Assembly: GCA_001791045.1 (NCBI GenBank)
Contig: MGDT01000004.1
Coordinates: forward strand, 1-34,615
DNA: 34,615 nucleotides
Direction of reading: 5' to 3'
Origin: Candidatus Uhrbacteria bacterium RIFCSPHIGHO2_01_FULL_63_20
Lineage (GTDB): Bacteria; Patescibacteriota; Patescibacteriia; UBA9934; GWF2-40-263
A model generated the notes under the pieces. That model was not told the DNA's origin. It ran no database searches and was given only the letters and a program-made list of their open reading frames with translations. Both the position numbers and the translations under genes were made by a program. Positions 10,163 through 32,918 of this stretch are shown here, one piece after another (position 1 is the stretch's first letter; each line of letters opens with the position of its first letter).

Positions 10163-11465
10163 CCTGCCGCTCGCGTGTCTCGCTTTCGCCCTGACGGCGG
10201 TATTCGCGTTCGCGCTCCCCGTCCGGGCCGCGACCGACGGGACATGCATATGCAGGGAGGATGACGCGTGCGTGCCCGAGCTCAATCCGGACGGGACTTT
10301 CATCACGTTCGAGTTCCCATCCACGGCGACCGCCGAGGAGATCGCGCAAGGCGTGCTCCGAACCTGCACGTACGTCTGCCGCAACCACGACGGCGTCTAC
10401 GGGGGCGTGCACGATTCGAACGTCAGTCGTTTGAGTTCGACGGTCAAGCTCGGCTGCGAGAACGACACGGATTTCCTCCAAGGATACGTCGGGACCCTGA
10501 AGTCGCTCGGGCTAGGCTCCGGCGAATTGAGCACTCCTCTGGAAAAGAAGGAGGTGCTCACGTTCGTCAAGCCCACCCTCTCCTTCGACATCCCCGGGCT
10601 CAAATTCGCCGAGGTGCTGCAACAGGGGGATTTCCTGGAGGTGAATTTCCTCGCCGACTACATCACGGCCGTGTACCGGATGCTCCTTGGGGTCTCGCTC
10701 ACCGTCGCCATCGTCATGATCATGGTGGGCGGGGTGCAGTACGTGATCGGCGCCGGCACCGGCGAGGTGAAAGCGGCCAAGGAACGCATCAAGAACGCGG
10801 TGATCGGGTTCGTGCTCATGCTCTCCGTGTACGTGATCCTGTTCACGGTGAACCCGCAGCTCACGCTCCTGCCGTCGCTCAGGATCGAGATGATGGAGCC
10901 CGTCGAGTTCGTGTCCGAGGACGACGTGGTCTCGGGGACCGTGGCGGTCGACTTCAAGAAGCCCTCCGGGGGAAACATCCGCGGGCGCGGAGCCAGCCAG
11001 GTCCCCAGCGGCCTGACGGCATCCATCGAGGCCGTGGCCAAGAAGCTCGACACGCAGGGGTACGGGATCAGCATCGCGTCGAGCTTCCGCAGCGTCGAGA
11101 AGCAGGTCGCGCTCATCAAGCAGAACTGCCAGAATCCGCCCGGCTCCTCTACCTGCAACCCAAAGCCGGGGCGGCCGCAAACCTGCATCCTCAAGGGGAT
11201 GGACCCGGCCAACTGCCCGCACACCACGGGGCACGCGCTCGACATCTGGGCGACCAAGGAGACCTCGGACGGGATTCCCGTGCAATGCGTGAGCCAGGAA
11301 ACGTGTCTCAAGAAGGGGAACATGCCGGCTTGTTTCAACGACCCGTGCCAGAAGGCGCTCATCGACGCGATGAAGGCCGAGGGGTTCAAGGCCGAGGGGT
11401 TCTGCGTGCTCGCGAGCGAAGCGTGGCACTTCGAGAAACCGAAGATGTCCTCCAACTGCAACTGA
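10143..11465 (+). CDS. TrbC/VirB2-like membrane segment fused to a VanY-type D,D-carboxypeptidase (M15)
   Basis: The predicted protein has 440 residues in three parts. First is a signal peptide (residues 7-30, LACLAFALTAVFAFALPVRA) and a cysteine-containing region beginning CICREDDAC. Second, about residues 166-236, are two membrane helices with a short basic turn (MIMVGGVQYVIGAGTG...KERIKNAVIGFVLMLSVYVI). This is the layout of TrbC/VirB2-like pilin subunits, where GG-x-YxxxAG is common. Third, about residues 290-440, is a LAS-family carboxypeptidase with SSFRSVEKQ, the zinc motif HTTGHALD (S/x-H-xx-G-x-A-x-D) and EAWHFE near the C-terminus, so the metal ligands look complete. It would trim D-Ala stem peptides near a secretion pilus. 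ATG at 10143 overlaps the dsbA-like stop. The fusion is unusual. Confidence 0.82.
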   Translation: MWTKRSNLPLACLAFALTAVFAFALPVRAATDGTCICREDDACVPELNPDGTFITFEFPSTATAEEIAQGVLRTCTYVCRNHDGVYGGVHDSNVSRLSSTVKLGCENDTDFLQGYVGTLKSLGLGSGELSTPLEKKEVLTFVKPTLSFDIPGLKFAEVLQQGDFLEVNFLADYITAVYRMLLGVSLTVAIVMIMVGGVQYVIGAGTGEVKAAKERIKNAVIGFVLMLSVYVILFTVNPQLTLLPSLRIEMMEPVEFVSEDDVVSGTVAVDFKKPSGGNIRGRGASQVPSGLTASIEAVAKKLDTQGYGISIASSFRSVEKQVALIKQNCQNPPGSSTCNPKPGRPQTCILKGMDPANCPHTTGHALDIWATKETSDGIPVQCVSQETCLKKGNMPACFNDPCQKALIDAMKAEGFKAEGFCVLASEAWHFEKPKMSSNCN

Positions 11466-12767: not shown

Positions 12768-14807
12768 GTGCACCCGATCGAAACTCGCCTTCACCTTTTC
12801 CTTGAGGCCCGGATGCCGTGCAAGTTCCGGGTCGTTTTCGAGCACGCGCGCGGCGTGGTCGCGGGCGGTCTTCATGAGGTCCACGTCCGCGAGGGTGGCG
12901 AGCTTGAAATCCGGGAATCCGCTTTGCGCGTTGCCGAACAGGTTCCCTGCCCCGCGCAATTCCAGATCCTTTTCCGCGAGCGCGAACCCGTCGTCGCTCT
13001 CCACCATGGCACGTAGCCGGGCTTCTCCTGCTTTCGTGAGATCGTCGGGCAGCAGGAAGCACCAGGATTGCATGTCAGACCTCCCGACCCGTCCGCGCAG
13101 CTGGTGCAGTTGGGCGAGCCCGAAGCGTTCGGCGCCCGCGATCGCGATGACCGTGGCGTTCGGGACGTCCACGCCCACTTCCACCACCGTGGTAGCCACG
13201 AGCACGTCGATCTGCCCTGCGCGGAACAGGTCGATCGCCTCGGCCTTGTCGTCGCTCGAGAGTTTCCCGTGCAGGATGCCGATCCTCAACCCAAGCAAGT
13301 CCCCTTTCGACAGGCTCTTGGCCATCTCCTCCACCGACTTGGCCCCGCTTCTGTCGCTCTCCTCGATGAGCGGACACACCACATACGCCTGACGCCCGGC
13401 GGCCACCTCCTCGCGCACCTTTTCCCACACGGCCTTCCGGTCGCGTCCCTTGGCGAGGAACGTGGCGATCGGTTTCCGCCCCTTCGGCCGGTCCTGGATG
13501 ATCGAGAGTTCCAGGTCGCCATACAACGTGAGCGCGAGCGAACGCGGGATCGGGGTCGCGGTCATGGAGAGGAGATGCGGCGCCGGGTCGGAATCGAGGA
13601 GCGCGCGACGCTGCTCCACCCCGAATCGATGCTGCTCGTCGACCACCACGAACCCCATGTCCGGGAGATCCACCCCGCCCTGGAACAGCGCGTGCGTCCC
13701 GACCACGCAGCGGACGTCGCCGGCCCGGATCGCCTGGAACAGCTCGTCGCGGGAGACGGGTGCCTCGCGCACCAGGCATTGCGCGCCGGTGAAGAGCGCG
13801 ACCGGCGAGGCGGGAAAGAATCTGCAGAACGCCGCGTGCTGCTGAAGAGCCAAGATCTCCGTGGGGGCGAGATAGGCGACGCCGAACCCCGCGTTGAGCG
13901 CCGAGGAAGCGGCGATCGCCGCGACCGCGGTCTTCCCGCTCCCGACGTCTCCCTGGAGCAGCCGGTTCATGGGATGAGCGTTCGCCATGTCCTTCACGAT
14001 TTCCCACGCGGCGCGGCGCTGCCCCGGGGTGAGCGCGAACGGCAATGTCTTCACGAACGTCTTCAGCTGGTCCTCGTCCACCGCGATGCGTCGCGCGTCG
14101 CGCTTGGCGACTTGGCGGCGGACGTCGGCATACTGCAGTTGGTGGAGGAACAGCTCGTCGAACTTGAGCCGGTTCACGGCCGCGGCGAGCGCTTCGCCGG
14201 ACTCCGGAAAATGGATGTCCGCGATCGCTTGCGGATAACTCGGGAATCCTACCGACGACACGATCTCCCGTGGAAGCCATTCCTCGAACTCGACGGTGGC
14301 GGGGAGCGCGGCCTTGATCGCCGCACGCAGGCGCCGTGCCGTGAGCGACCGGGTGAGCGAGTACACGGGCACGAGCCGACCCGTATGCGTGCGCGCCCCC
14401 TCGGGTTCCCACACCGGGTTCACGAGCGTGCGGCCTCCGAACTTGGCGTCCACGCGACCGGCGAGCGACACGCGTGTCCCCTCGCGCAAGGTCTTCGCGA
14501 GATACGGCTGGTTGAACCACATGACCTTGATGGAGCCCGATTCATCCTCGACCATCGCTTCGGTGATGGTGAGCCGCTTGTTCTTGGACGGACGCGAAGC
14601 GATCGAGGTCACCTTCCCCGTCACGGTGGCCGTGACGTCGTGGCGCAACGACGCGATGGGGAGCGCACGGGAATAGTCGTCGTAGCGGAATGGGAAATAG
14701 AACAGCAGGTCGCGCACCGAGGCGACATCGAGCGTCTTCAGGTCCTTGGCCGTCTCGCTCCCCACTCCCGGGAGGGCGGTGACCGGCGTTCCCAGATGCA
14801 AGGCCAT
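12759..14807 (-). CDS. recG: ATP-dependent DNA helicase RecG
   Basis: This branch-migration and fork-reversal helicase has 682 residues from the chosen ATG at 14805-14807 (MALHLGTPVTALPGVGSETA), the usual RecG length. The wedge/OB domain comes first (VTATVTGKVTSI...). Helicase motif I is LLQGDVGSGKTAVA, motif II is VVDEQHRFG, motif III is LLSMTATPIPRSLALTLYGDL. The C-terminal helicase motifs are VATTVVEVGVDVPNA and QLHQLRGRVGRS, and the TRG-type region is ELRGAGNLFGNAQSG. A GTG start 39 bp upstream (14846) is also open, but the shorter form fits the family better. It is convergent with radA, and the two stops overlap. Confidence 0.95.
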   Translation of the reverse strand: MALHLGTPVTALPGVGSETAKDLKTLDVASVRDLLFYFPFRYDDYSRALPIASLRHDVTATVTGKVTSIASRPSKNKRLTITEAMVEDESGSIKVMWFNQPYLAKTLREGTRVSLAGRVDAKFGGRTLVNPVWEPEGARTHTGRLVPVYSLTRSLTARRLRAAIKAALPATVEFEEWLPREIVSSVGFPSYPQAIADIHFPESGEALAAAVNRLKFDELFLHQLQYADVRRQVAKRDARRIAVDEDQLKTFVKTLPFALTPGQRRAAWEIVKDMANAHPMNRLLQGDVGSGKTAVAAIAASSALNAGFGVAYLAPTEILALQQHAAFCRFFPASPVALFTGAQCLVREAPVSRDELFQAIRAGDVRCVVGTHALFQGGVDLPDMGFVVVDEQHRFGVEQRRALLDSDPAPHLLSMTATPIPRSLALTLYGDLELSIIQDRPKGRKPIATFLAKGRDRKAVWEKVREEVAAGRQAYVVCPLIEESDRSGAKSVEEMAKSLSKGDLLGLRIGILHGKLSSDDKAEAIDLFRAGQIDVLVATTVVEVGVDVPNATVIAIAGAERFGLAQLHQLRGRVGRSDMQSWCFLLPDDLTKAGEARLRAMVESDDGFALAEKDLELRGAGNLFGNAQSGFPDFKLATLADVDLMKTARDHAARVLENDPELARHPGLKEKVKASFDRVHLE

Positions 14808-14883: not shown

Positions 14884-14977
14884 GGAGAGGTACCCAAGAG
14901 GCTGAAGGGGCGGGTTTGCTAAACCTGTAGGTCGGGGTTTTCCCGGCGCGAGGGTTCGAATCCCTCCCTCTCCGCCA
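14884..14977 (+). tRNA. trnS(gcu): tRNA-Ser (anticodon GCU)
   Basis: The acceptor stem GGAGAGG pairs with CCTCTCC, followed by discriminator G and encoded CCA. The anticodon loop TTTGCTAA lies inside the stem GGG-TTTGCTAA-CCT and gives anticodon GCT. A long variable arm (GGTCGGGG...TCCCGGC region) marks it as serine type. The T-loop is GGTTCGAATCC. It reads AGC/AGU codons. Confidence 0.97.
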
Positions 14978-15022
14978 GCGTTGATCGTTTGAACCGGTCG
15001 AACGATGAAGGTTGGTCACAAT

Positions 15023-15110
15023 GGAAAGGTGGCCGAGTGGTTGAAGGCACTGGTCTTGAAAACCAGCAGGCCGCAAGGTCTCGTGGGTTCGAATCCCACC
15101 CTTTCCGCCA
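15023..15110 (+). tRNA. trnS(uga): tRNA-Ser (anticodon UGA)
   Basis: The acceptor stem GGAAAGG pairs with CCTTTCC, then discriminator G and encoded CCA. The anticodon stem-loop CTGGT-CTTGAAA-ACCAG gives TGA. The long variable arm (CAGGCCGCAAGGTCTC) is the serine class hallmark. The T-loop is GGGTTCGAATCCC. It lies 45 bp after the first tRNA-Ser and probably shares its transcript. serS, the cognate ligase gene, is at the right end of the window. Confidence 0.97.
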
Positions 15111-15120
15111 GAACTATCTT

Positions 15121-15627
15121 ATGGAGGAGAAACAACAGCAAGACGACGCGATCCACGCCGGGGAACATCTGCTCTCCTGGGAAGTGGACGAGTATCCGCG
15201 CCATGAGCGCTCGAAGCGGTGGTACGTGATCGCGGCGATCGTGGGCGTGCTGCTCATCGTCTACTCGATCTGGACGGCCAACTTCATGTTCGCGCTAATC
15301 GTGCTCATGCTCGGGATCATCATCCTGTTGTCCACGTTCAAGGAACCAGACCGCATCGCGGTAATCCTCACCACGAACGGCCTGGTGCTGGGCGAGGCGT
15401 TCTACGAGTACCGCAACCTCAAGGATTTCGCCATCGTGTACGAACCGCCGACGGTCAAGAACCTGTACATCGATTTCGCGTCGAAGTGGCGGCCGCTCCT
15501 CACCATCCCGCTCGAGGACACGGATCCCAACCGGGTGCGTGAGGCGATGCTGCCGTACCTCAAGGAAGACCTGGAACGCACCGGGGAAACCTTGACCGAC
15601 GTGCTTCAGAGAGTGTATAAGCTGTAG
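15121..15627 (+). CDS. Small two-helix membrane protein, PH-like C-terminal domain possible
   Basis: The predicted protein has 168 residues. It has a polar N-terminus (MEEKQQQDDAIHAGEHLLSW) and two closely spaced membrane helices (about residues 36-55 and 57-78, YVIAAIVGVLLIVYSIWTA and FALIVLMLGIIILLSTF). A soluble alpha/beta domain follows (DRIAVILTTNGLVLGEAFYEYRNLKDF...IPLEDTDPNRVREAMLPYLKEDL). The strand pattern followed by a C-terminal helix resembles bacterial PH-like membrane proteins, but I cannot assign a family with confidence. ATG at 15121 begins 10 bp after tRNA-Ser(UGA), so it is probably read through from the tRNA promoter. No strong ribosome-binding site is visible. Confidence 0.8.
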   Translation: MEEKQQQDDAIHAGEHLLSWEVDEYPRHERSKRWYVIAAIVGVLLIVYSIWTANFMFALIVLMLGIIILLSTFKEPDRIAVILTTNGLVLGEAFYEYRNLKDFAIVYEPPTVKNLYIDFASKWRPLLTIPLEDTDPNRVREAMLPYLKEDLERTGETLTDVLQRVYKL

Positions 15628-15643
15628 GCTCCGAGAGAGAAAC

Positions 15644-15720
15644 GCGCCCGTAGCTCAGTTGGATAGAGCATCAGCTTGCGGAGCTGAGGGTCGCACGTTC
15701 GAGTCGTGCCGGGCGCACCA
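15644..15720 (+). tRNA. trnR(gcg): tRNA-Arg (anticodon GCG)
   Basis: The acceptor stem GCGCCCG pairs with CGGGCGC, with discriminator A and encoded CCA. The D-arm is GCTC-AGTTGGATA-GAGC. The anticodon stem-loop TCAGC-TTGCGGA-GCTGA gives anticodon GCG at 15678-15680. The T-arm is GCACG-TTCGAGT-CGTGC. A at position 20 and C at 35 are standard arginine identity elements and support the assignment. Most bacteria use ACG (inosine-modified) for CGU/CGC/CGA, so GCG is unusual. It lies 16 bp after the membrane protein gene and is followed by a strong terminator. Confidence 0.95.
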
Positions 15721-15749
15721 TCGACGACTTCTTTGAACCTCAAGGAACT

Positions 15750-15785
15750 CAAGCAAAACGCGCCTTCAATGGCGCGTTTTGCTTG
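15750..15785. terminator. Bidirectional intrinsic terminator
   Basis: A perfect 15-bp stem (CAAGCAAAACGCGCC at 15750-15764, complement at 15771-15785) closes a TTCAAT loop. The GC-rich core is flanked by AAAA on one side and TTTT on the other, so it can end transcription both of tRNA-Arg (plus) and of the accessory operon coming from the right (minus). Confidence 0.9.
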
Positions 15786-15873
15786 CAGGTAGACATGACC
15801 AATTTCGCGTAGCGCCATCCGCTGTGGATAACTGGCACATAAAAACGAGCAGAGAACCTGCTCGTCCGTCGGG

Positions 15874-16068
15874 CTACTGCATCTCAGCCCGACCGCCAGA
15901 AATCTTGGCTGTTGAGATGTAGAGTCTCTCCATGTTCTTCGCGATCAGCTCCTGGCTCTGAACGACCGGCCCGATGTCGTTCGAGAGCCAGATGGTCGGC
16001 AGTCCGACTCGGCGTGCCTTGGCTGCGCGTCGCCTCTTCTTCGTCGCGGCCTTCTTCTTTTTAGCCAC
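15874..16068 (-). CDS. 64-residue basic protein, last gene of the accessory operon
   Basis: A GTG start at 16066-16068 is well supported by an AAGGAGG Shine-Dalgarno at 16074-16080. The N-terminal third is almost all Lys/Arg/Ala (VAKKKKAATKKRRRAAKARR), typical of nucleic-acid-binding or ribosome-binding tails. The rest (VGLPTIWLSNDIGPVVQSQE, then ...RLYISTAKISGGRAEMQ) is a compact mixed sequence with no membrane helix. I do not recognise it. It begins 2 bp after the stop of the cyclase-like gene, so the two are almost certainly translated together. A longer form starting further upstream is open but would overlap the cyclase gene and lacks this ribosome-binding site. Confidence 0.75.
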   Translation of the reverse strand: MAKKKKAATKKRRRAAKARRVGLPTIWLSNDIGPVVQSQELIAKNMERLYISTAKISGGRAEMQ

Positions 16069-16070
16069 CG

Positions 16071-17507
16071 TCACCTCCTTGCCCGCTTCTTGGCGAGAGT
16101 CTTGTTTGTGCGATCCTTCGACGTCGGGGGACGTCGCTTCTTTCCGTTGCGAGTGGGCGGGATGCTCGCGACGCGAACCTTCTCCAACGCCTCGCTCCGC
16201 ATGACGCAGGTCTGGTAGAGGGAACCAAGGAGCGAGGCGGCGGCTTCCGCCCATGCGCAGTCTTCGAGCGAAAAGGCGTTCGGCAACGACGACGTGATGT
16301 TGAGAACACCGACCGGCTTGAACGGAGACCTGCCGTCGGGATCCGAGTCGGCGGACGTCGACCGGAGAATCGCCGCGGAGAGGATCGCCCGATACGGCGG
16401 CTTCTCGTCGTCCTTGGCGGGACGATAGATGCCGGGCACGGTCTCGATCTCGTACGACCCGATCTCCTGATCCTTGGAAGACTTGCGTCCGAAGTACACG
16501 ATATCGGTCGATTCATGGACATCAGGCGCTACCGCGACGCCCAAGTCCCGCTCGATGTTCTTCCATACTGAATATACCGCAACCCCGCATTTCTTTCCAG
16601 GTGAGGTCACGCCACCGGCGGCGTTCATCGCCAGCTTCATCGGCGGCACCCACTTCTTGTGCTCCGGATTCGTGGGCGCCATGACCATCTTCAGCTTGCC
16701 TGCATCATCGAGCTCCAGCACGTCAGCCTCGAGCCGGGACACCTTCCCCTCCCGTCGTGCCGGCAGGCGCAGCGCTTTCAAGATCGCATGGTGATATCGC
16801 TTGAATGACGCTTTCAGCTTCGACGCTGGAAGGCCGACGCTGTGGTGGTGGAAGCGCTCTACGTAGTCGTTGATCCCGCGCAGGCTGAAGAGGCGCGCGC
16901 GAGCCTCCGGGGATGAGTGCGAATACTGCAATGCCGCGACGTTCGCAGGCGGGTCGTCCTTGTCCCCGCCAAGCCAGTAGACCTCCCGAGAGCCGGCGCC
17001 CTTGAGGAGCTCGATGCGCCCGATGGGGGCAAGACGCGCCCGAAGGTTCTTGTTCGAGATGGCGGGTTGGAGCTGCTGCGCGACCTCCTCGGTGCACCAG
17101 ATCTGGTTGGTGGCGGCCATCGGCTCGATGCGAGCCGGAATGACGATTCCCGGCCCATACCGATGCTCACCGGATCGCGCGAGCGAGCGGACGGGATCAT
17201 CGCCCTTCTCCAGATCCTGGACGTGCATCGCGATGCGGATCGCCAGGTCCGAGAGCGCCTTCTCCTTCCACTCGTGGGTCATGACGAGGTTGCGGATGGC
17301 GAGAGCGAACTTCGCGGCGTCCCGCGTGTCGTCGAAGACGGCGATGATCGAGTCGCCCCACGTGTTCGCGTCGAGCGGGCGCGTTCCGCCTTCCTTCTCG
17401 AGGAGTCTTGCTGCTTCTGGAAGGAGCTCGGTGAACACGGCCTTCTGCCCCTCCTCGTTCAAGCTACTGAAGCCCTTCAAGTCGAGCAGAACGATGGCCT
17501 GCGGCAC
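16071..17507 (-). CDS. Class III nucleotide-cyclase-like protein with a GAF-like C-terminal domain
   Basis: This is a soluble protein of 478 residues. Residues about 3-160 follow the adenylate/guanylate cyclase fold. LLDLKGFSSL holds the first metal aspartate (D9), NTWGDSIIAVF the second (D52), and YGPGIVIPARIEPM the dimer/transition-state segment, keeping R126. Two usually conserved residues are changed. The base-selecting lysine position before GD is N48, and the catalytic asparagine before the arginine is V122. Residues about 240-430 end in KPVGVLNITSSLPNAFSLED, the hallmark end of a GAF sensor domain. The tail (about 445-478) is very basic. GTG at 17505-17507 has GAGGGAGG upstream. It could make a non-standard cyclic nucleotide, or be a catalytically dead sensor. 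Pycsar-type cyclases are the nearest precedent for stand-alone soluble members in defence. Confidence 0.8.
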   Translation of the reverse strand: MPQAIVLLDLKGFSSLNEEGQKAVFTELLPEAARLLEKEGGTRPLDANTWGDSIIAVFDDTRDAAKFALAIRNLVMTHEWKEKALSDLAIRIAMHVQDLEKGDDPVRSLARSGEHRYGPGIVIPARIEPMAATNQIWCTEEVAQQLQPAISNKNLRARLAPIGRIELLKGAGSREVYWLGGDKDDPPANVAALQYSHSSPEARARLFSLRGINDYVERFHHHSVGLPASKLKASFKRYHHAILKALRLPARREGKVSRLEADVLELDDAGKLKMVMAPTNPEHKKWVPPMKLAMNAAGGVTSPGKKCGVAVYSVWKNIERDLGVAVAPDVHESTDIVYFGRKSSKDQEIGSYEIETVPGIYRPAKDDEKPPYRAILSAAILRSTSADSDPDGRSPFKPVGVLNITSSLPNAFSLEDCAWAEAAASLLGSLYQTCVMRSEALEKVRVASIPPTRNGKKRRPPTSKDRTNKTLAKKRARR

Positions 17508-17576
17508 ACGAGCCTCCCTCGCGGAACGGCACAGACCGTACGACGAGGGTGCGGACGCAGCAAGGAAGGTGCCGTA

Positions 17577-20500
17577 TCACGGCGCGTACCTCCCTCCGTC
17601 GTTGAGCAGCGTCCCGCCCGGCCCCTCGCCGCCCCAGACGATCACGTCGGAACCCGCAGCCGTCACCGACATCGAATGGCGCACCGTCGGCGCGCCGATC
17701 GCGTCGAGCGGTTGCCAAGTGTCGGTCGTCGGGTCGTACGCGCCTCCGTCGTCGAAGAATACGTTACCCGGCGGGCCGAGCCCTCCCCAGACGACGAAGC
17801 GGTTCACCGGCGCGCCGATCCAGTCGCCGGAGACCTTCACGCGTGGCGATGGCGCGTTCACCGTCGTCATGGGCGTCCACGTATCCGTGGCGGGGTTGTA
17901 CCGACCGCCGGTGTCGGTCTGCTGGGTGTCGCCGTAGCCGCCCCAGACGAGGAACTCCTGCCCGCTCCACGCGTATGCCATGAAGAAGCGGCCCGTAGGC
18001 GCGTTCGTCGTCGACATGAGCGTCCAGCTGTTGTTCGACGGGTTGTACAGCGCGCCAGTGTTCGGGTACGTCCCCCCGGCTCCGATGCCCTCGCCTCCCC
18101 ACACGAGCATGCGCGAGCCCGTCCAGAGGGCGGCGGGTTGGGAACGTCCCGAGTTCACGTCGAACACGCCCGGGATCGCGGTCCAGGTGTTCGTGGAGGG
18201 GTCATACTCCCCGCCGTCTCGGAACCCCGTCGCGTCGTTGCGGCCGCCCCACACGAGCATGAGGCTCCCCGTCCACACGGCACCAGGAAGTCTTCGAGGC
18301 GTGGGCGCTCCAGTGGTCGACAGCGCCGTCCACGAGTCGATCCCCGGATTGTATGAGCCGCCGTCGTTCAGGTGCCCCGCGACGCTGTTGACACCGCCGA
18401 ACACGAGCAGGCGCGTCCCGGTCCACACGCCAGCGGCGCCGTCGCGCTTGAGCGGCGCGCCGGTGGTCGTCATCGTCGTCCACGTGTTCGTCGACGGGGT
18501 GAGGCGACCGCCCGTATTCTTGTTGAGGCCGCCCCAGACGATGAGCTCGGCGCCGGTCCACGCGGCGATGTGCCCGGTCCGGGCGGCCGGCGCGCCGGTG
18601 ATTGCCGTGGCGCTCCACTGCGAGCACAGCCCATCGACGGTGCAGGTCGCATTCGCGCCGCAGGTGCCGCACCCGTCGGCAAGGCCGCACCCGTCGTCGC
18701 CGCACTCCTTCGCGAGGCAGTCCGGCGCGCACGTGGCGACGCACTGGCCGGTGGCGGTCTCGCAGGCATCCGTGCCCGAGCAACTGCCGCAGCCGTCCGG
18801 GTCGCCGCACCCGTCGTCGCCGCAGACCCTGCCCGCGCAGGCGGGCTGGCAGATGCACTGCCCCAGCTCGCAGGCGAAGCCGCCGGGACATGCGCCGCAG
18901 CCCGTCGCGTTTCCACACCCGTCGTCGCCGCAGGTCACGCCGCCGCATTGCTGGCGACAGACGCAGAAGTTGCCGAGGCAGTCGTTCGCCGGCGCGCACG
19001 TGCCGCAGGATCGACCGCACCCGTCCACGCCGCACTGGGCACCTGCCGGGCAGGTGAGCGTGCATTGGCACTGGCCGAACCCGTCGCAGAAATCGTTGGC
19101 TCCTGGGCAGCTTCCGCAGCCGCTCGGGTCGCCACAGCCGTCGTCGCCGCACTCGCGTCCAGCGCATTGCTGCGGACACACGCAGTACCCGTCGACGCAC
19201 GTGTCGCCAGGAGCGCAACCGCTGCCGCAGCCGCCCGCGTTGCAGCCGTTGGGATCCGGGCCGCACTCGCGGTCACCGCACGGCGCGGGAGCGCAGCAGG
19301 CGCTGTTGCGGCAGCCGAACTCGCAGTTGACGATGTTCGGCGACCAGACGCACTGCCCATCGAAGCACGCCCCAGAGTTGAGCTGATACTCGCGCACGCG
19401 GTTCTCGTCGAAGCACTCGCTCGGCGGCGTGCCGTCGCACGCGGTTGGCGGGCCGCATGCGCCGCCGCAGCCGTCGTCGCCGCAGACGGCTCCGCGGGCG
19501 GCGCAGTCGGAGAGGCAGTCGACAGCGCATACGGCGGTCGTCGAGCTGGTGTCCTCGCAGTGTTCGCCTGAGTTGCAGACCTCGAAGATGTAGAGGCCGT
19601 CGCCGTTGGCATCGAGGGCCCACGGGTAGATGGCGTCGCCAGCGTTCGGTGCCCAGCACTGCACGGTGTCGGGCGTCGTGCAGATCGGCACGCCAGCGCA
19701 GTCGGGATCGGCGCACCCGATGAGGCCGTCCCCATCCTCGTCGGTTCGTGCGTCGGTGCATTCCTGCGGTGGCGCAGCGCAGTCCTGCGGACACGTCGAG
19801 AAGGACTCCGCGAGGCTTGAACAAATGTCGTCGCCGCAGATCGGTCCTTCTGGAGGATTCTCGACGACAACGAGCCCGCCGCAGTCGTCAGCGACCGAAG
19901 GCTCCCAATCGTCGACGTCGTCGAGGTGAACGTGCACAATTGCACCGTCCCACCACATCTGATTTTGGACGAAGTCGCGATTGAAGTCCTGCGTCGGAAA
20001 CGGGCCGATGACCAAACCTTCGTCGTCGAGCCTAATCGCCGAATATTCCTCGGTGGCGGGAAGGCCAACGATTCGAGGGCCTCCAAAGCTCCCCTGCTCG
20101 TCACGCAAACATTTGTATGCAGCCCAGAAACCGGATCTCAGAATAAAAGACTGAGGATCGAGGGCCTGCTCTCCGTACTGTCCTATGTAAATTGGCGACG
20201 GGACAGGAGCAGGGTTATCGATAATAGCCCAACTAGCTCCACTGTCGTCCGCCGGGCATTCGGAACTCTCGCAAAAATCCTGCAGAACCGCGCCGTTTGC
20301 ACCGTGGACGGCCAATCCGCCGCCGTTGTCGCACGGAACGCCCCGCTCATCTTCAGGAAGGGCGCTCCACCTGGTACGGATCCGTTCTGCGGGAACGGCC
20401 AAGAGGCCCGAGGTCGCGATGCCGAGACACTTCTCCCGATTCGCATCAGTTGAAGCCGTTGTACATGCTGGAGCCCAGCCGAACGTCTCCGAGCCATCTG

Positions 20501-21347
20501 GTCCGCAGATTTCGGAACCTGAGCCGTCCACGGATGCGTCCGTTGCTCCGTCCGATTCACACTGGTCCCGACTGGTGCAGGTTTCAGAGAGATCGCAGAC
20601 GCCGTCAAGGATCAGATGAGGATCGGCGAACGGACACAGAGCGTCGCGTGCGCACGAATAGCCGCGATACTTCCATCCCGTCATCTCGCCGCCGTCAGCG
20701 CACCGTTCAGTCTCCTGTGATTCAGTGGCGGAGTATGCACCGTAACGAAGCGTTACATGCAGATGTGGCCCGTAGTTGCCGCCGTTGCGGATTCTTCGCG
20801 CGATTGTTCCCAGTCTCGCGCCCGCGACAACTTCAATATCGGGTCGACTCGTGAGAGACGGAACTTCAGAAATGTGTTCGAGGATGCCCGTGCATCGAGA
20901 CCCGGACACATGACCGGCACACTTCGCCGGATCATCTGAGCAGCCAGCGTCGCATTCAAGATGGCCAAGTAGAACGGAATATCGTCTATCAAGGGATTCG
21001 AGGATTGCGATGCCGCCGTAACCTCCTGCCCATCTCGCTTCACGAACAATCCCGGCGAATGGTGCATGAACAGGATCGCCGGGTTCCGCCACGAGATCGA
21101 CAGCGGTATGAACAATGAGACCAGGGCCGTCGAAGCAACTTGAGCAATAGGTTCCGACCCCTTCGTCGCTGCATCCACAGCATTGACAGTTGAAGTTACA
21201 GACATCGCTGCTCATCCGGCAGCCGCCAGCGGTTCCAGGCAGCGGATTCGAAGGCTGGGCAAGGCCAGCACTGTTGAAGAGCAGGAAACACCATGCGACG
21301 CGCGCAGGGAGAGCGAGCGCAGGTGTGGGTCGACTCAGCGGGAGCAC
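17577..21347 (-). CDS. Giant secreted protein: M23 peptidase + Cys-rich repeats + seven Kelch repeats
   Basis: The predicted protein has 1256 residues. A signal peptide covers about residues 10-31. An M23 (LytM-type) domain spans about 70-205, with all expected metal and catalytic positions: HTAVD (H80, D84), GHL (H129) and HLH (H195, H197). A middle region (about 210-540) has a GFWAAYKCLRDEQGSFGG...DFVQNQMWWDG pattern that resembles surface-binding repeats. Then come about six CGDDGCG-type cysteine repeats (about 610-905), of a style common in myxobacterial exported proteins. At the end are seven Kelch-like blades (about 915-1256), each TGAPxxR...WTGxxLLVWGG...YNPxxxTWTxM, which would close one propeller. 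The start is GTG at 21345-21347, just after the lipoprotein stop. Cleavage of peptidoglycan and binding to a surface partner are inferred. No sorting anchor is seen. Confidence 0.82.
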   Translation of the reverse strand: MLPLSRPTPALALPARVAWCFLLFNSAGLAQPSNPLPGTAGGCRMSSDVCNFNCQCCGCSDEGVGTYCSSCFDGPGLIVHTAVDLVAEPGDPVHAPFAGIVREARWAGGYGGIAILESLDRRYSVLLGHLECDAGCSDDPAKCAGHVSGSRCTGILEHISEVPSLTSRPDIEVVAGARLGTIARRIRNGGNYGPHLHVTLRYGAYSATESQETERCADGGEMTGWKYRGYSCARDALCPFADPHLILDGVCDLSETCTSRDQCESDGATDASVDGSGSEICGPDGSETFGWAPACTTASTDANREKCLGIATSGLLAVPAERIRTRWSALPEDERGVPCDNGGGLAVHGANGAVLQDFCESSECPADDSGASWAIIDNPAPVPSPIYIGQYGEQALDPQSFILRSGFWAAYKCLRDEQGSFGGPRIVGLPATEEYSAIRLDDEGLVIGPFPTQDFNRDFVQNQMWWDGAIVHVHLDDVDDWEPSVADDCGGLVVVENPPEGPICGDDICSSLAESFSTCPQDCAAPPQECTDARTDEDGDGLIGCADPDCAGVPICTTPDTVQCWAPNAGDAIYPWALDANGDGLYIFEVCNSGEHCEDTSSTTAVCAVDCLSDCAARGAVCGDDGCGGACGPPTACDGTPPSECFDENRVREYQLNSGACFDGQCVWSPNIVNCEFGCRNSACCAPAPCGDRECGPDPNGCNAGGCGSGCAPGDTCVDGYCVCPQQCAGRECGDDGCGDPSGCGSCPGANDFCDGFGQCQCTLTCPAGAQCGVDGCGRSCGTCAPANDCLGNFCVCRQQCGGVTCGDDGCGNATGCGACPGGFACELGQCICQPACAGRVCGDDGCGDPDGCGSCSGTDACETATGQCVATCAPDCLAKECGDDGCGLADGCGTCGANATCTVDGLCSQWSATAITGAPAARTGHIAAWTGAELIVWGGLNKNTGGRLTPSTNTWTTMTTTGAPLKRDGAAGVWTGTRLLVFGGVNSVAGHLNDGGSYNPGIDSWTALSTTGAPTPRRLPGAVWTGSLMLVWGGRNDATGFRDGGEYDPSTNTWTAIPGVFDVNSGRSQPAALWTGSRMLVWGGEGIGAGGTYPNTGALYNPSNNSWTLMSTTNAPTGRFFMAYAWSGQEFLVWGGYGDTQQTDTGGRYNPATDTWTPMTTVNAPSPRVKVSGDWIGAPVNRFVVWGGLGPPGNVFFDDGGAYDPTTDTWQPLDAIGAPTVRHSMSVTAAGSDVIVWGGEGPGGTLLNDGGRYAP

Positions 21348-21351
21348 GTTG

Positions 21352-21918
21352 TCACCGCCGAAGGTCCGTGGTTTCTATGATTGCAATGATCGCGTCTAAG
21401 AAGAGCTGCTCGTCGCTCTCCTGAAAATCGATGAACGCGACCCCGCCGCGAACGGACGAGATGTAGTTAATACTCGGTGAAATAGATGAGATCCCTGTCA
21501 GTCGAAAGCAGTCAACAGGCCCAGTGAATCCACAAACAGAACGCTGAATGCCAGGGTGTACAAGGAGTTCTGAAAACTCCACTTCCGCGCTATTTGTCGT
21601 CGGGAAGAGTAGAACGCGAGCAAGGGGCTGACGAGGATCATCCACAACGACAAGAAAGAACTCGTATCCGGGCTCTCCGTCCTGTCGGGTACCCGATGCG
21701 ACTTCATGGGGGGCCGCTTCAGGGTTAGCTGGCAGCGCGTACTTTTCAGGAATGTTGGCTAGCACCTGGCCGGACGCGGTTGCGACGACTCGCCCCCGTG
21801 CTGGCGGCGGGGGATCCTGCGGGGTCGTCTCGTGGCAGCCTCCGCCCGCGAGGAGGAGCGCGATCGCAAGCGCCATCCACGCTCGCGTTGAAGTCGTCGG
21901 TGTTGTTGCGCTCCGCAT
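21352..21918 (-). CDS. Predicted lipoprotein of unknown function
   Basis: The predicted protein has 188 residues. The N-terminus ends in MALAIALLLAGGGCHET, a lipoprotein signal with the modified cysteine at residue 28 from the first ATG. A shorter start at residue 15 would still leave a signal. A proline linker (QDPPPPARG) follows, then a mixed alpha/beta domain with two further cysteines (SVCGFTGPVDCF) that could form a disulfide. I do not recognise the domain. It is the first gene of the minus-strand accessory operon, with only 4 bp between its stop and the start of the giant M23-Kelch protein, so the two are probably made together. By eye the gene is less GC-rich than its neighbours. Confidence 0.68.
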   Translation of the reverse strand: MRSATTPTTSTRAWMALAIALLLAGGGCHETTPQDPPPPARGRVVATASGQVLANIPEKYALPANPEAAPHEVASGTRQDGEPGYEFFLVVVDDPRQPLARVLLFPTTNSAEVEFSELLVHPGIQRSVCGFTGPVDCFRLTGISSISPSINYISSVRGGVAFIDFQESDEQLFLDAIIAIIETTDLRR

Positions 21919-22137
21919 AGCTTGTCGATGTTACAGCGATGAGCAGATCGGGGTCGGCGCGCCCGCGCTTGCGTCCGGACTGCGCCCTCCGATAGATGAG
22001 GCGCAGCCCACACGTCGGTGATGCTCGCACCTTCATGGTGCCCGACGTCGTCGACATCGTCCAGCCAGGCGCCGCGAACGGCGCCGTTGCATCTAGACTG
22101 CGCCGTTCTTCTCGATACTGTGTCCAATAGAATCTGG

Positions 22138-22752
22138 TCACCCCTTCGCCACCGCGAATCCGTGGATCTCCTTCGCCCCCGCGTCCCTGAGGGTCCGTGC
22201 GGCCGCGGCCATGGTGGCGCCGCTCGTGAACACGTCGTCGCACAACAAGATGCGGGAGAGCATGCGAGGGTCCGCGACCTCGAACACGCCATCAAGGTCT
22301 CCGAAACGGCGATCGGTGCGTCCCACCCGCGAGCGCGGAGGAGTGTGCAGCGTGCGCTTCAGGAGCGGGAGGCACGGCACGCCCAGCGTCTCTCCTGCCG
22401 CGAGCGCGATCGCTTCGGCCTGGTCGAACTCGCGGGCACGAAACCGTTCGGCCGAGAGCGGGACCCATGTGACCGCATCCACCACGTGCGGCGCCGTGGC
22501 GTAGAGCGCGCGACGCACGCGCTTCGCGATGGCCGCGGCGGCCTGCGCGTCCCCGTCGTATTTCCACGCCCCGATGAGCCGGCGCATGGTCGGGTCGCCA
22601 TACGGCCCGCCCGTCGTCAGCGTCGCAAGCGACGCGATCGGGGCGGTCTCGTGCGAGGGCGTCGGGAGGAACGCCTCGTCGCACTCCGAGCATAGCGTGG
22701 CCCCCTCGCGCTCGCAGCGGACGCAAAAACGCGGGAAGAGAGCGTCGAGCAT
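22138..22752 (-). CDS. comFC: ComFC-like phosphoribosyltransferase, competence/DNA-uptake protein
   Basis: This is a 204-residue ComF-family protein. MLDALFPRFCVRCEREG...LCSECDEAF forms the N-terminal zinc ribbon (two CxxC pairs). The middle carries the family segment MRRLIGAWKYDGD. The PRPP-binding loop is ILLCDDVFTSGATM, and a C-terminal strand (KEIHGFAVAKG) ends the fold. ComFC acts in the cytosol during natural transformation and is thought to help bring in single-stranded DNA. I chose ATG at 22750-22752 because a strong AAGGAGG lies upstream and the family starts there. An ATG at 22794 is also in frame and overlaps the preceding gene. It is the last gene of the type IV secretion-like cluster. 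Confidence 0.92.
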   Translation of the reverse strand: MLDALFPRFCVRCEREGATLCSECDEAFLPTPSHETAPIASLATLTTGGPYGDPTMRRLIGAWKYDGDAQAAAAIAKRVRRALYATAPHVVDAVTWVPLSAERFRAREFDQAEAIALAAGETLGVPCLPLLKRTLHTPPRSRVGRTDRRFGDLDGVFEVADPRMLSRILLCDDVFTSGATMAAAARTLRDAGAKEIHGFAVAKG

Positions 22753-31208: not shown

Positions 31209-32918
31209 TCACGGGATGATCAGATTGAGTCCGCATCCCGTCGTTTCTCCGCTCGGATCCCCGTTCGTTTGGATGGCGATCGCCGTGCCATCCACGTCGG
31301 CGACCGCCGTCCCCTGCCTGGTGCCGTACTGCCCCTGGCTCGCGTCGTAGGGACCGATGCACGACCAGCTCATGTCGCCGTCGAGCGCCTCGAACTCCAC
31401 CGAGAAGCGGAAGGCGTCGCCGCTGCCCACGCCGTCGAGGTCGTAGGCAAGCGTCGCGACGTTCGCGACCTCCGCGAGCTCGTGCCAGAAGAAGCCGTAG
31501 CTCCCGTCCGCGAAATGGTACTCGCCGCTCAAGGTGATGCGGGCGGCCGGCGCCGAGAACGGCGCGGTCCAACTCACATGGAGCGCGCGAGGCGCGCCAG
31601 GAGCTCCCGCTCCCTGCGCGCTTCCTCCATCGTCCTCGGTCCCGTCCTCGTTACCGCCATCAGCCGGAACGTCGCGATCAGCAGGCGCATCCTGCTCACC
31701 TTCATCGGGGGATTCGTCATCTTCTCCGTCTTGGGTTCCATCGTCTTCCTCCTCCTCTTCCTGTTGCTCATCCACCGGCCCGCCGATCCCGCCGTCCTCG
31801 GAGGCTCCGAAGGCGAACGGGGCCGCGCAGGTCGACGTCAAGGCGCGCGTGATACACCCGAACCCGCTCACGCAGTCGCCCATCGGGAGCCCCGAGCGGG
31901 CGAACGTGCCGTCCGCCACGAAGCGGATTCGAGCGGGGTCGTAGCCGAGCAGGAGGAGCGTGCGCCAGTCCTCGACAGGCATGAGCCCGAACGCGGTCAC
32001 GGCGTACACGTCGCTCCGGCTCGCTTCCCGCGTCAGCGTCCCGACCGTGAGGCCCGCGACCGGCGTCCACGCGAGGTCCGCCGCGGAACCGATCGCGGCC
32101 CCCTGCTCGTAGCAGGCGAACTCTTCCTCCGCGATCAAGACGACGTCCCGGAAGTCGTACCCGAGTGCCATGAACGCCTGCTCGTCGACGACGTGCCGCG
32201 CCATGCCCCCGTCAAGCTGGTACACGCGGGGGTCGCCGGACACCTGGACGAGGCTGCCGTCCGGATGCCGGTTGACCGCCGCGAGCGCCGAGGCGTAGCG
32301 CGTGCCGTCGCTGACGCCGCAATCGAGTTGTGCGGCATCCAAGAGGTCCATTTCCCCGTCTTCGTCGCGCAGGATGAGGCTCATGGGGATCGAGATCCCA
32401 TGCTCCGCGCCCTGCGAGGCGTCGCCCTCCATGAGGGAGAGGTGCACGTGGTCGCCGCTGCACGCGCCCGTGCATCCCTCGATACCGATCAGCGTCCCCT
32501 CGGCCACCTCGGCCCCGTCCTTCACGATCACCCGTTTCAGGTGCGCGATGACCGCGTAGGTGCCGTCGAGCCGATCCACGTTCACGTGGATGCCGAACGG
32601 CGAGGCGGGATCGTCGTGGACCCGGGCGATGCCCGAGCTCGGCGCGTACACCGCCTGGTCGCGGTCGTTGGGCGTGTCGAGGTCCACCGCGTTGCGCGTG
32701 GAGCGGAAATGGTGGGAGTGCTCGCCGCCCACCCCTTGGGTGCACAGCATGCGCGTGCGGTCCGCGACCGGGAGGTTCAACACCCCGCGCGTGACCCCTC
32801 CGCCCACGTCACCGGTGCCCGGTGGGATCGGCGTTCCCCCTCCTCCGGTATCCGTGGCGCATCCGCCGCCAAGCATGGGGGCGATGATGAACCACGGGAG
32901 AACGAATCTCTGTCTCAT
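31209..32918 (-). CDS. Secreted lipoprotein with an M23-like domain lacking one zinc ligand
   Basis: The predicted protein has 569 residues. A lipoprotein-type signal ends at C20 (MLGGGC). An M23-like domain covers about 55-165: YAPSSGIARV, AHLKRVIVKDGAEVAEGTLIG and GDHVHLS (H157, H159) fit the family. However, the first HxxxD ligand is R75 in RNAVD, so catalysis may be lost. Two tandem ~45-residue repeats follow (about 212-345): DPRVYQLDGGMARHVVDEQA and SDVYAVTAFGLMPVEDWRT, each with LGYD and a closing G. This type recurs in Patescibacteria surface proteins. Then comes a highly acidic linker (about 380-440) and a C-terminal beta-rich domain (about 450-569). ATG at 32916-32918 has AAGGAG seven bases upstream. 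Confidence 0.83.
   Translation of the reverse strand: MRQRFVLPWFIIAPMLGGGCATDTGGGGTPIPPGTGDVGGGVTRGVLNLPVADRTRMLCTQGVGGEHSHHFRSTRNAVDLDTPNDRDQAVYAPSSGIARVHDDPASPFGIHVNVDRLDGTYAVIAHLKRVIVKDGAEVAEGTLIGIEGCTGACSGDHVHLSLMEGDASQGAEHGISIPMSLILRDEDGEMDLLDAAQLDCGVSDGTRYASALAAVNRHPDGSLVQVSGDPRVYQLDGGMARHVVDEQAFMALGYDFRDVVLIAEEEFACYEQGAAIGSAADLAWTPVAGLTVGTLTREASRSDVYAVTAFGLMPVEDWRTLLLLGYDPARIRFVADGTFARSGLPMGDCVSGFGCITRALTSTCAAPFAFGASEDGGIGGPVDEQQEEEEEDDGTQDGEDDESPDEGEQDAPADRDVPADGGNEDGTEDDGGSAQGAGAPGAPRALHVSWTAPFSAPAARITLSGEYHFADGSYGFFWHELAEVANVATLAYDLDGVGSGDAFRFSVEFEALDGDMSWSCIGPYDASQGQYGTRQGTAVADVDGTAIAIQTNGDPSGETTGCGLNLIIP

What the first reader, a model, noticed from the sequence alone, without database searches (positions are those of the whole stretch)
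15874..21918. Four-gene accessory operon joining a cyclase-like sensor to a secreted wall-acting giant
Four minus-strand genes lie with gaps of 4, 69 and 2 bp and share one terminator: lipoprotein, 1256-residue M23 + Cys-rich + Kelch protein, class III cyclase-like + GAF protein, and a 64-residue basic protein. I know of no described system with this set. A nucleotide-signalling module co-transcribed with two exported proteins suggests signal-controlled surface attack, attachment or defence. The small basic protein could be an effector or regulator.
Basis: partly seen in the sequence, partly recalled or inferred. Interest (0 to 1): 0.65.

Follow-up and report, generated by a model that had tools for sequence, protein, structure and literature searches.

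The report
Two-part accessory insert beside tRNA-Arg
A bacterium with a very small genome carries, inserted next to a tRNA gene, what look like two separate cargo modules - a secreted wall-cutting giant with its lipoprotein, and a nucleotide-signalling enzyme related to ones found in bacterial immune gene clusters - rather than one four-part weapon, and that enzyme carries a rare sensor-like domain that I could find in only one other protein.

Summary
The four minus-strand genes are real, tightly spaced, and form a 6.4 kb insertion: in relative G009, tRNA-Arg and comF are about 32 bp apart. They do not look like one system. Module A is a 170-nt structured leader, a lipoprotein gene and an M23/Cys-rich/Kelch giant. 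Same-genus genome G001 has the same layout (leader 75% identical; M23/MopE/FG-GAP giant) and no cyclase homolog. Module B is the cyclase gene plus a 64-codon gene. The cyclase has a class III fold and both metal aspartates, and groups with 'TWGD' cyclases; many of these are fused to TPR-S and sit beside RyR and TIR genes or PycTM. Its C-terminal domain has no Pfam match ('GAF' is unproven) and was found in one other protein: a domain-CHAT fusion in another class member, about 6 kb from a CD-NTase gene. Best reading: a rare cyclase-sensor variant of nucleotide-signalling conflict systems beside an unrelated secreted wall hydrolase. The 64-residue protein is an orphan with at most a faint RyR resemblance. 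Product, defence function and co-transcription are untested.

The parts
15721..22137 (.). accessory insertion between tRNA-Arg and comF
   Evidence: about 32 bp between tRNA-Arg and comF in G009 (L109); the RecG/tRNA/VirB8/VirB4 neighbourhood without any of the four genes in G001, G008, G009, G003. Exact ends unknown; no tRNA 3'-end repeat found within the window.
21925..22095 (-). 170-nt leader with hairpin-forming repeats, upstream of the lipoprotein gene
   Evidence: 75% identical to the leader of the G001 lipoprotein-giant locus, E 2e-29; one copy per genome at that level; shared hairpins in the two-sequence fold, though the single fold is not unusual against shuffles (z -1.42); no Rfam match; a 10-nt gap within the alignment argues against coding.
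21352..21918 (-). lipoprotein, 188 aa (module A)
   Evidence: signal peptide with lipobox LAGGGC; weakly similar to the G001 lipoprotein, E 0.003 over the first 45 residues; no Pfam match.
17577..21347 (-). secreted giant, 1256 aa: M23 peptidase, shared middle region, Cys-rich repeats, Kelch beta-propeller (module A)
   Evidence: Pfam M23 3.6e-8, Kelch 2e-44; HxxxD and HxH motifs; residues 403-908 shared with the G001 giant, E 1e-89, which also has M23 and, instead of Kelch, FG-GAP repeats.
16071..17507 (-). class III cyclase domain (res. 1-182) + rare sensor-like domain (res. 204-433) + basic tail (module B)
   Evidence: fold search, profile search of solved structures, tree; C-terminal domain shared with the G178 CHAT protein, E 1.5e-31 and 2e-31; 15 of the last 38 residues are K/R.
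15874..16068 (-). small basic protein, 64 aa, pI 11.4 (module B)
   Evidence: 2-bp gap and own ribosome site; no Pfam, PADLOC, phage or plasmid match; PDB and PHROG hits only at E 0.9 and 0.13 or worse; predicted two helices at modest confidence.
15838..15872 (-). terminator hairpin after the last gene
   Evidence: 10-pair stem including G-U, followed by a U run; z -3.75.

Best explanation
The block is an accessory insertion next to tRNA-Arg made of two modules. Module A (leader, lipoprotein, M23/Cys-rich/Kelch giant) is an exported envelope-acting pair: the lipoprotein is anchored at the cell surface and the giant is secreted, probably to cut or bind peptidoglycan of the cell itself or of a neighbouring host. 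Module B is a nucleotide-signalling conflict (most likely anti-phage) unit: the C-terminal domain of the cyclase protein senses a trigger or ligand and switches on the N-terminal class III cyclase, whose nucleotide product, or conformational change, acts through a partner that may be the 64-residue basic protein. Shown: the insertion, both modules' domains, the separate occurrence of module A, the sharing of the sensor-like domain with a CHAT protease. Inferred: sensing, cyclase activity, defence role, partner role of the small protein, direction of action of the giant.
For: Empty site in relatives. Module A layout with M23 giant in G001 without any cyclase homolog in that genome. Cyclase fold; both metal Asp (D9, D52) and the transition-state Arg (R126) kept. 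Tree places it in a 17-row set, 16 of them with the TWGD motif (97/87), whose largest well-supported subgroup is cyclase-TPR-S. Cyclase-TPR-S, RyR and TIR genes in a row in Syntrophomonadaceae (L012-L015, L017), and cyclase-TPR-S near PycTM in Priestia and Metabacillus. The sensor-like domain is fused to CHAT in G178, about 6 kb from a CBASS-type CD-NTase gene (PADLOC E 2.7e-26) followed by a gene that reads like Cap15 (naming from memory). Published precedent for displacement of a caspase-like peptidase by a cNMP cyclase on one scaffold (PMC7159879, System 4).
Against: The cyclase lacks the transition-state Asn (V122) and canonical purine-reading residues, so it could be inactive or use another substrate. 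No cNMP-binding domain (PF00027) was found in G000 (controls rang), so no ordinary receptor. No recognised effector (TIR, PycTM) in the block. PADLOC has no model matching the cyclase. Only one other protein with the sensor-like domain was found, so linkage to defence rests on few cases. The cyclase-small coupling is seen once only.
Confidence: 0.55

Rival explanations
1. One functional four-gene system: a cyclase-based sensor controls expression or release of a secreted wall-acting giant and its lipoprotein.
For: Tight spacing, same strand, single strong terminator at the end; all four absent from this site in relatives.
Against: Module A occurs without a cyclase in the same genus; no secreted giant beside the cyclase's relatives inspected. 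A 69-bp gap with a 7-bp inverted repeat separates the modules.
Confidence: 0.12
2. The cyclase protein is an ordinary housekeeping regulator (a cAMP/cGMP-type cyclase with a ligand-binding domain) unrelated to conflict.
For: Many bacterial class III cyclases carry GAF or TPR domains and do routine signalling (general knowledge); the domain's homolog resembles GAF weakly (Pfam E 0.09).
Against: Patchy: full architecture in no other of 96 relatives or 380 phylum genomes; no cNMP receptor domain found in the genome; the domain's other partner is a CHAT protease near CBASS-type genes.
Confidence: 0.2
3. Module B is decaying cargo: the cyclase has lost activity and the 64-codon ORF is not a real gene.
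For: Missing catalytic Asn, long branch (1.73), near-zero codon score of the small ORF, no homolog of the small protein.
Against: The cyclase ORF is intact at 478 codons with GC3 0.81 and positive codon score; metal Asp and Arg kept; the small ORF has its own ribosome site and precedes the terminator.
Confidence: 0.13

Closest known systems
Cyclase-TPR-S / RyR / TIR gene sets (Syntrophomonadaceae L012-L015, L017) and cyclase-TPR-S near PycTM (Priestia aryabhattai plasmid, Metabacillus bambusae)
   Same: TWGD-type class III cyclase at the N terminus, sensor-like domain at the C terminus, similar length (469-490 vs 478 aa); in the Syntrophomonadaceae sets and in Priestia a short gene follows directly.
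   Different: C-terminal domain is not TPR-S; the short protein is not a recognisable RyR domain; no TIR or PycTM gene follows; the window cyclase lies outside the 11-member TPR-S group (99/96).
Pycsar (pyrimidine cyclase PycC with PycTM or PycTIR)
   Same: Class III cyclase; relatives of it lie near PycTM.
   Different: No PycTM/PycTIR in the block, no PADLOC PycC match, no cNMP-binding domain found in the genome; product unknown.
Domain-CHAT protein of G178 (P0006), CHAT region closest to SAVED_CHAT in PADLOC
   Same: Same rare domain (34-38% identity), also beside a K/R-rich stretch.
   Different: Fused to a CHAT protease instead of a cyclase, and in front of it rather than behind.
G001 lipoprotein + 1654-aa M23/MopE/FG-GAP giant
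   Same: Leader, gene order, lipobox protein, M23 N terminus, shared region of about 500 residues.
   Different: FG-GAP repeats instead of Kelch; divergent tyrosine recombinase next to the leader; no cyclase gene.

Membership tests
Class III nucleotide cyclase | cyclase catalytic fold | tested here: met
   Foldseek best E 8.4e-11 against CyaB; 154 matches at E<=0.001
Class III nucleotide cyclase | two metal-binding aspartates | tested here: met
   D9 and D52, invariant in a 13-sequence alignment
Class III nucleotide cyclase | transition-state Asn and Arg | tested here: inconclusive
   R126 kept, Asn replaced by V122; the Rhizobium relative shares the loss
Class III nucleotide cyclase | makes a cyclic nucleotide | not testable with these tools
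   needs an enzyme assay
Pycsar | adjacent PycTM or PycTIR effector | tested here: not met
   no such domain among the four genes; not searched genome-wide
Pycsar | cyclic-nucleotide-binding (CNBD) receptor, as in PycTIR | tested here: not met
   PF00027 not found in G000, rings in 11 of 14 controls
Pycsar | pyrimidine product | not testable with these tools
   needs an enzyme assay
Cyclase-TPR-S/RyR/TIR set | TPR-S domain after the cyclase | tested here: not met
   no PF20308 hit while five relatives tested have it
Cyclase-TPR-S/RyR/TIR set | RyR-domain gene directly downstream | tested here: inconclusive
   no Pfam RyR hit; a local RyR model scores it above all but 2 of 913 scored shuffles, over residues 25-52 only
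Cyclase-TPR-S/RyR/TIR set | TIR-domain gene next in line | tested here: not met
   terminator then tRNA-Arg follow the small gene
GAF domain | recognisable GAF profile or fold | tested here: inconclusive
   no hit for window, E 0.09 for homolog; model pLDDT about 35 there
Secreted M23 peptidase | HxxxD and HxH metal motifs, export signal | tested here: met
   H80, H195; hydrophobic N terminus read from sequence; export itself untested

The most novel reading that the evidence does not exclude
A previously undescribed sensor domain is used interchangeably in ultrasmall (Patescibacteria-like) bacteria as the trigger of two alternative immune outputs, a class III nucleotide cyclase (with a tiny basic partner protein) or a CHAT protease, giving a minimal nucleotide-signalling defence system.
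Probability: 0.3. Interest if true: 0.65.

Novelty: new variant of a known kind. Interest (0 to 1): 0.42.

Why it matters
If module B works as inferred, one rare domain couples to either a cyclase or a CHAT protease, a direct handle on how conflict systems swap outputs, in a genome of under 0.9 Mb in which no ordinary cyclic-nucleotide receptor was found. The recurrent leader-lipoprotein-M23 giant module is a candidate tool by which ultrasmall bacteria act on the envelopes of cells they live on.

Tried and rejected
Relatives of the full cyclase in IMG/VR and phages: none. C-terminal domain in plasmids and IMG/VR: none; in 398 genomes of L016's phylum: none, though without a positive control there. 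The G031 hit was a generic cyclase-TPR-like protein with only the cyclase domain in common. Rfam for the leader: no match. Island ends by tRNA 3' repeat: none within the window. Two ~62-aa paralogs near the G178 CHAT gene are not related to the 64-aa protein (shuffle fractions 0.25 and 0.97). The three weak hits of the 64-aa protein that were inspected overlapped other, longer ORFs and were dropped. Profile comparison with one GAF domain: no signal, but both profiles were too thin to judge. Structure of the C-terminal domain: low confidence.

Full report
What is there. The four minus-strand ORFs, their gaps (4, 69, 2 bp) and a terminator after the last are confirmed. The window lies in an 862,982-base assembly, 98% complete. 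That size, and the ~1 Mb genomes of its class, fit Patescibacteria/CPR; this is inference, as no tool named the organism.

Insertion. RecG, a tRNA-Ser/Ser/Arg cluster and the VirB8/VirB4 genes stand together in relatives. In G009 tRNA-Arg ends at L109:10154 and the comF-like gene ends at 10187, about 32 bp apart; in the window that gap is 6.4 kb (15720 to 22138) and holds this block. I found no repeated tRNA 3' end inside the window, so the mode of entry is unknown.

Module A. The giant has Pfam M23 and Kelch, both metal motifs of M23 and a Cys-rich middle. In G001 a leader 75% identical over 170 nt precedes a 195-aa lipoprotein with a lipobox and a 1654-aa protein with M23, MopE and FG-GAP repeats. 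The giants share about 500 residues (E 1e-89), the lipoproteins only weakly (E 0.003). G001 has no cyclase homolog. So module A is inherited or moved without module B. A tyrosine recombinase lies divergent from the leader in G001, and a relative of it lies between wall-hydrolase-like genes in G009.

Module B, cyclase. Pfam is marginal, but the predicted structure is a class III cyclase and a 13-sequence profile finds solved cyclases (3mr7, E 1.4e-14). Both metal Asp and the Arg are kept; the Asn is Val. A scan of one genome for each of 84,980 species gave 160 confirmed loci, of which 80 were kept. In a tree of 49 domains the window falls in a 17-row set, 16 with TWGD (97/87), but outside the 11-row group that holds the TPR-S fusions, and on a long branch, so its exact place is unsure. 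Members of that group lie in rows cyclase-TPR-S, RyR, TIR or near PycTM. RyR genes were found in L004, L012, L013, L014, L015 and L017.

Module B, C-terminal domain. It has no Pfam match. One other protein carries it, in G178 of the same class, fused to CHAT. Searches of 96 relatives, 380 phylum and 381 class genomes (overlapping draws), and 41 of G178's order, found only these two. G178's protein lies about 6 kb from a CD-NTase gene that overlaps a 229-aa gene reading like Cap15 (from memory), with a recombinase and, by eye, a transposase-like gene nearby. Nearness is not an operon.

Small protein. Orphan; polybasic N terminus, two predicted helices. A local RyR model scores it above all but 2 of 913 scored shuffles over 28 residues; several comparisons were tried, so this is a lead only.

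Mechanism and limits. I infer that the C-terminal domain senses and the cyclase signals. Displacement of a caspase-like peptidase by a cyclase domain is published for other systems (PMC7159879). The base-reading residues described for PycC enzymes (PMC11224242) are not matched in an obvious way, so the substrate is open. No PF00027 receptor was found in the genome. Co-transcription, enzyme activity and defence are untested.

Noticed in passing
window 14884-15720; L107, L109, L111, L112: The tRNA-Ser/Ser/Arg segment has opposite orientation relative to RecG in G001 and G008 compared with the window, G009 and G003; G003 has a 3.6 kb gap between tRNA-Arg and tRNA-Ser.
   Followed up: partly
L108:11185-12159; L110:3655-4746: A related tyrosine recombinase lies beside secreted M23 or amidase-like genes in G001 and G009.
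   Followed up: partly
L007:8322-8510 and 13835-14026: Two paralogous ~62-aa proteins (MS.RP.IIF..SLVSMMQP) in G178, one 52 bp upstream of the CHAT gene.
   Followed up: partly
window 31209-32918 (-): A second M23-domain gene in the window, beyond the VirB4-like genes.
   Followed up: no
L018:8001-10749: Two tandem TWGD cyclase genes in a Melainabacteria-type genome.
   Followed up: no
L005:4980-6053; L084:1-873: Cyclase-NUDIX fusion in Rhizobium and, by eye, a SLOG-like N terminus on a cyclase fragment in L084 (no Pfam match).
   Followed up: partly
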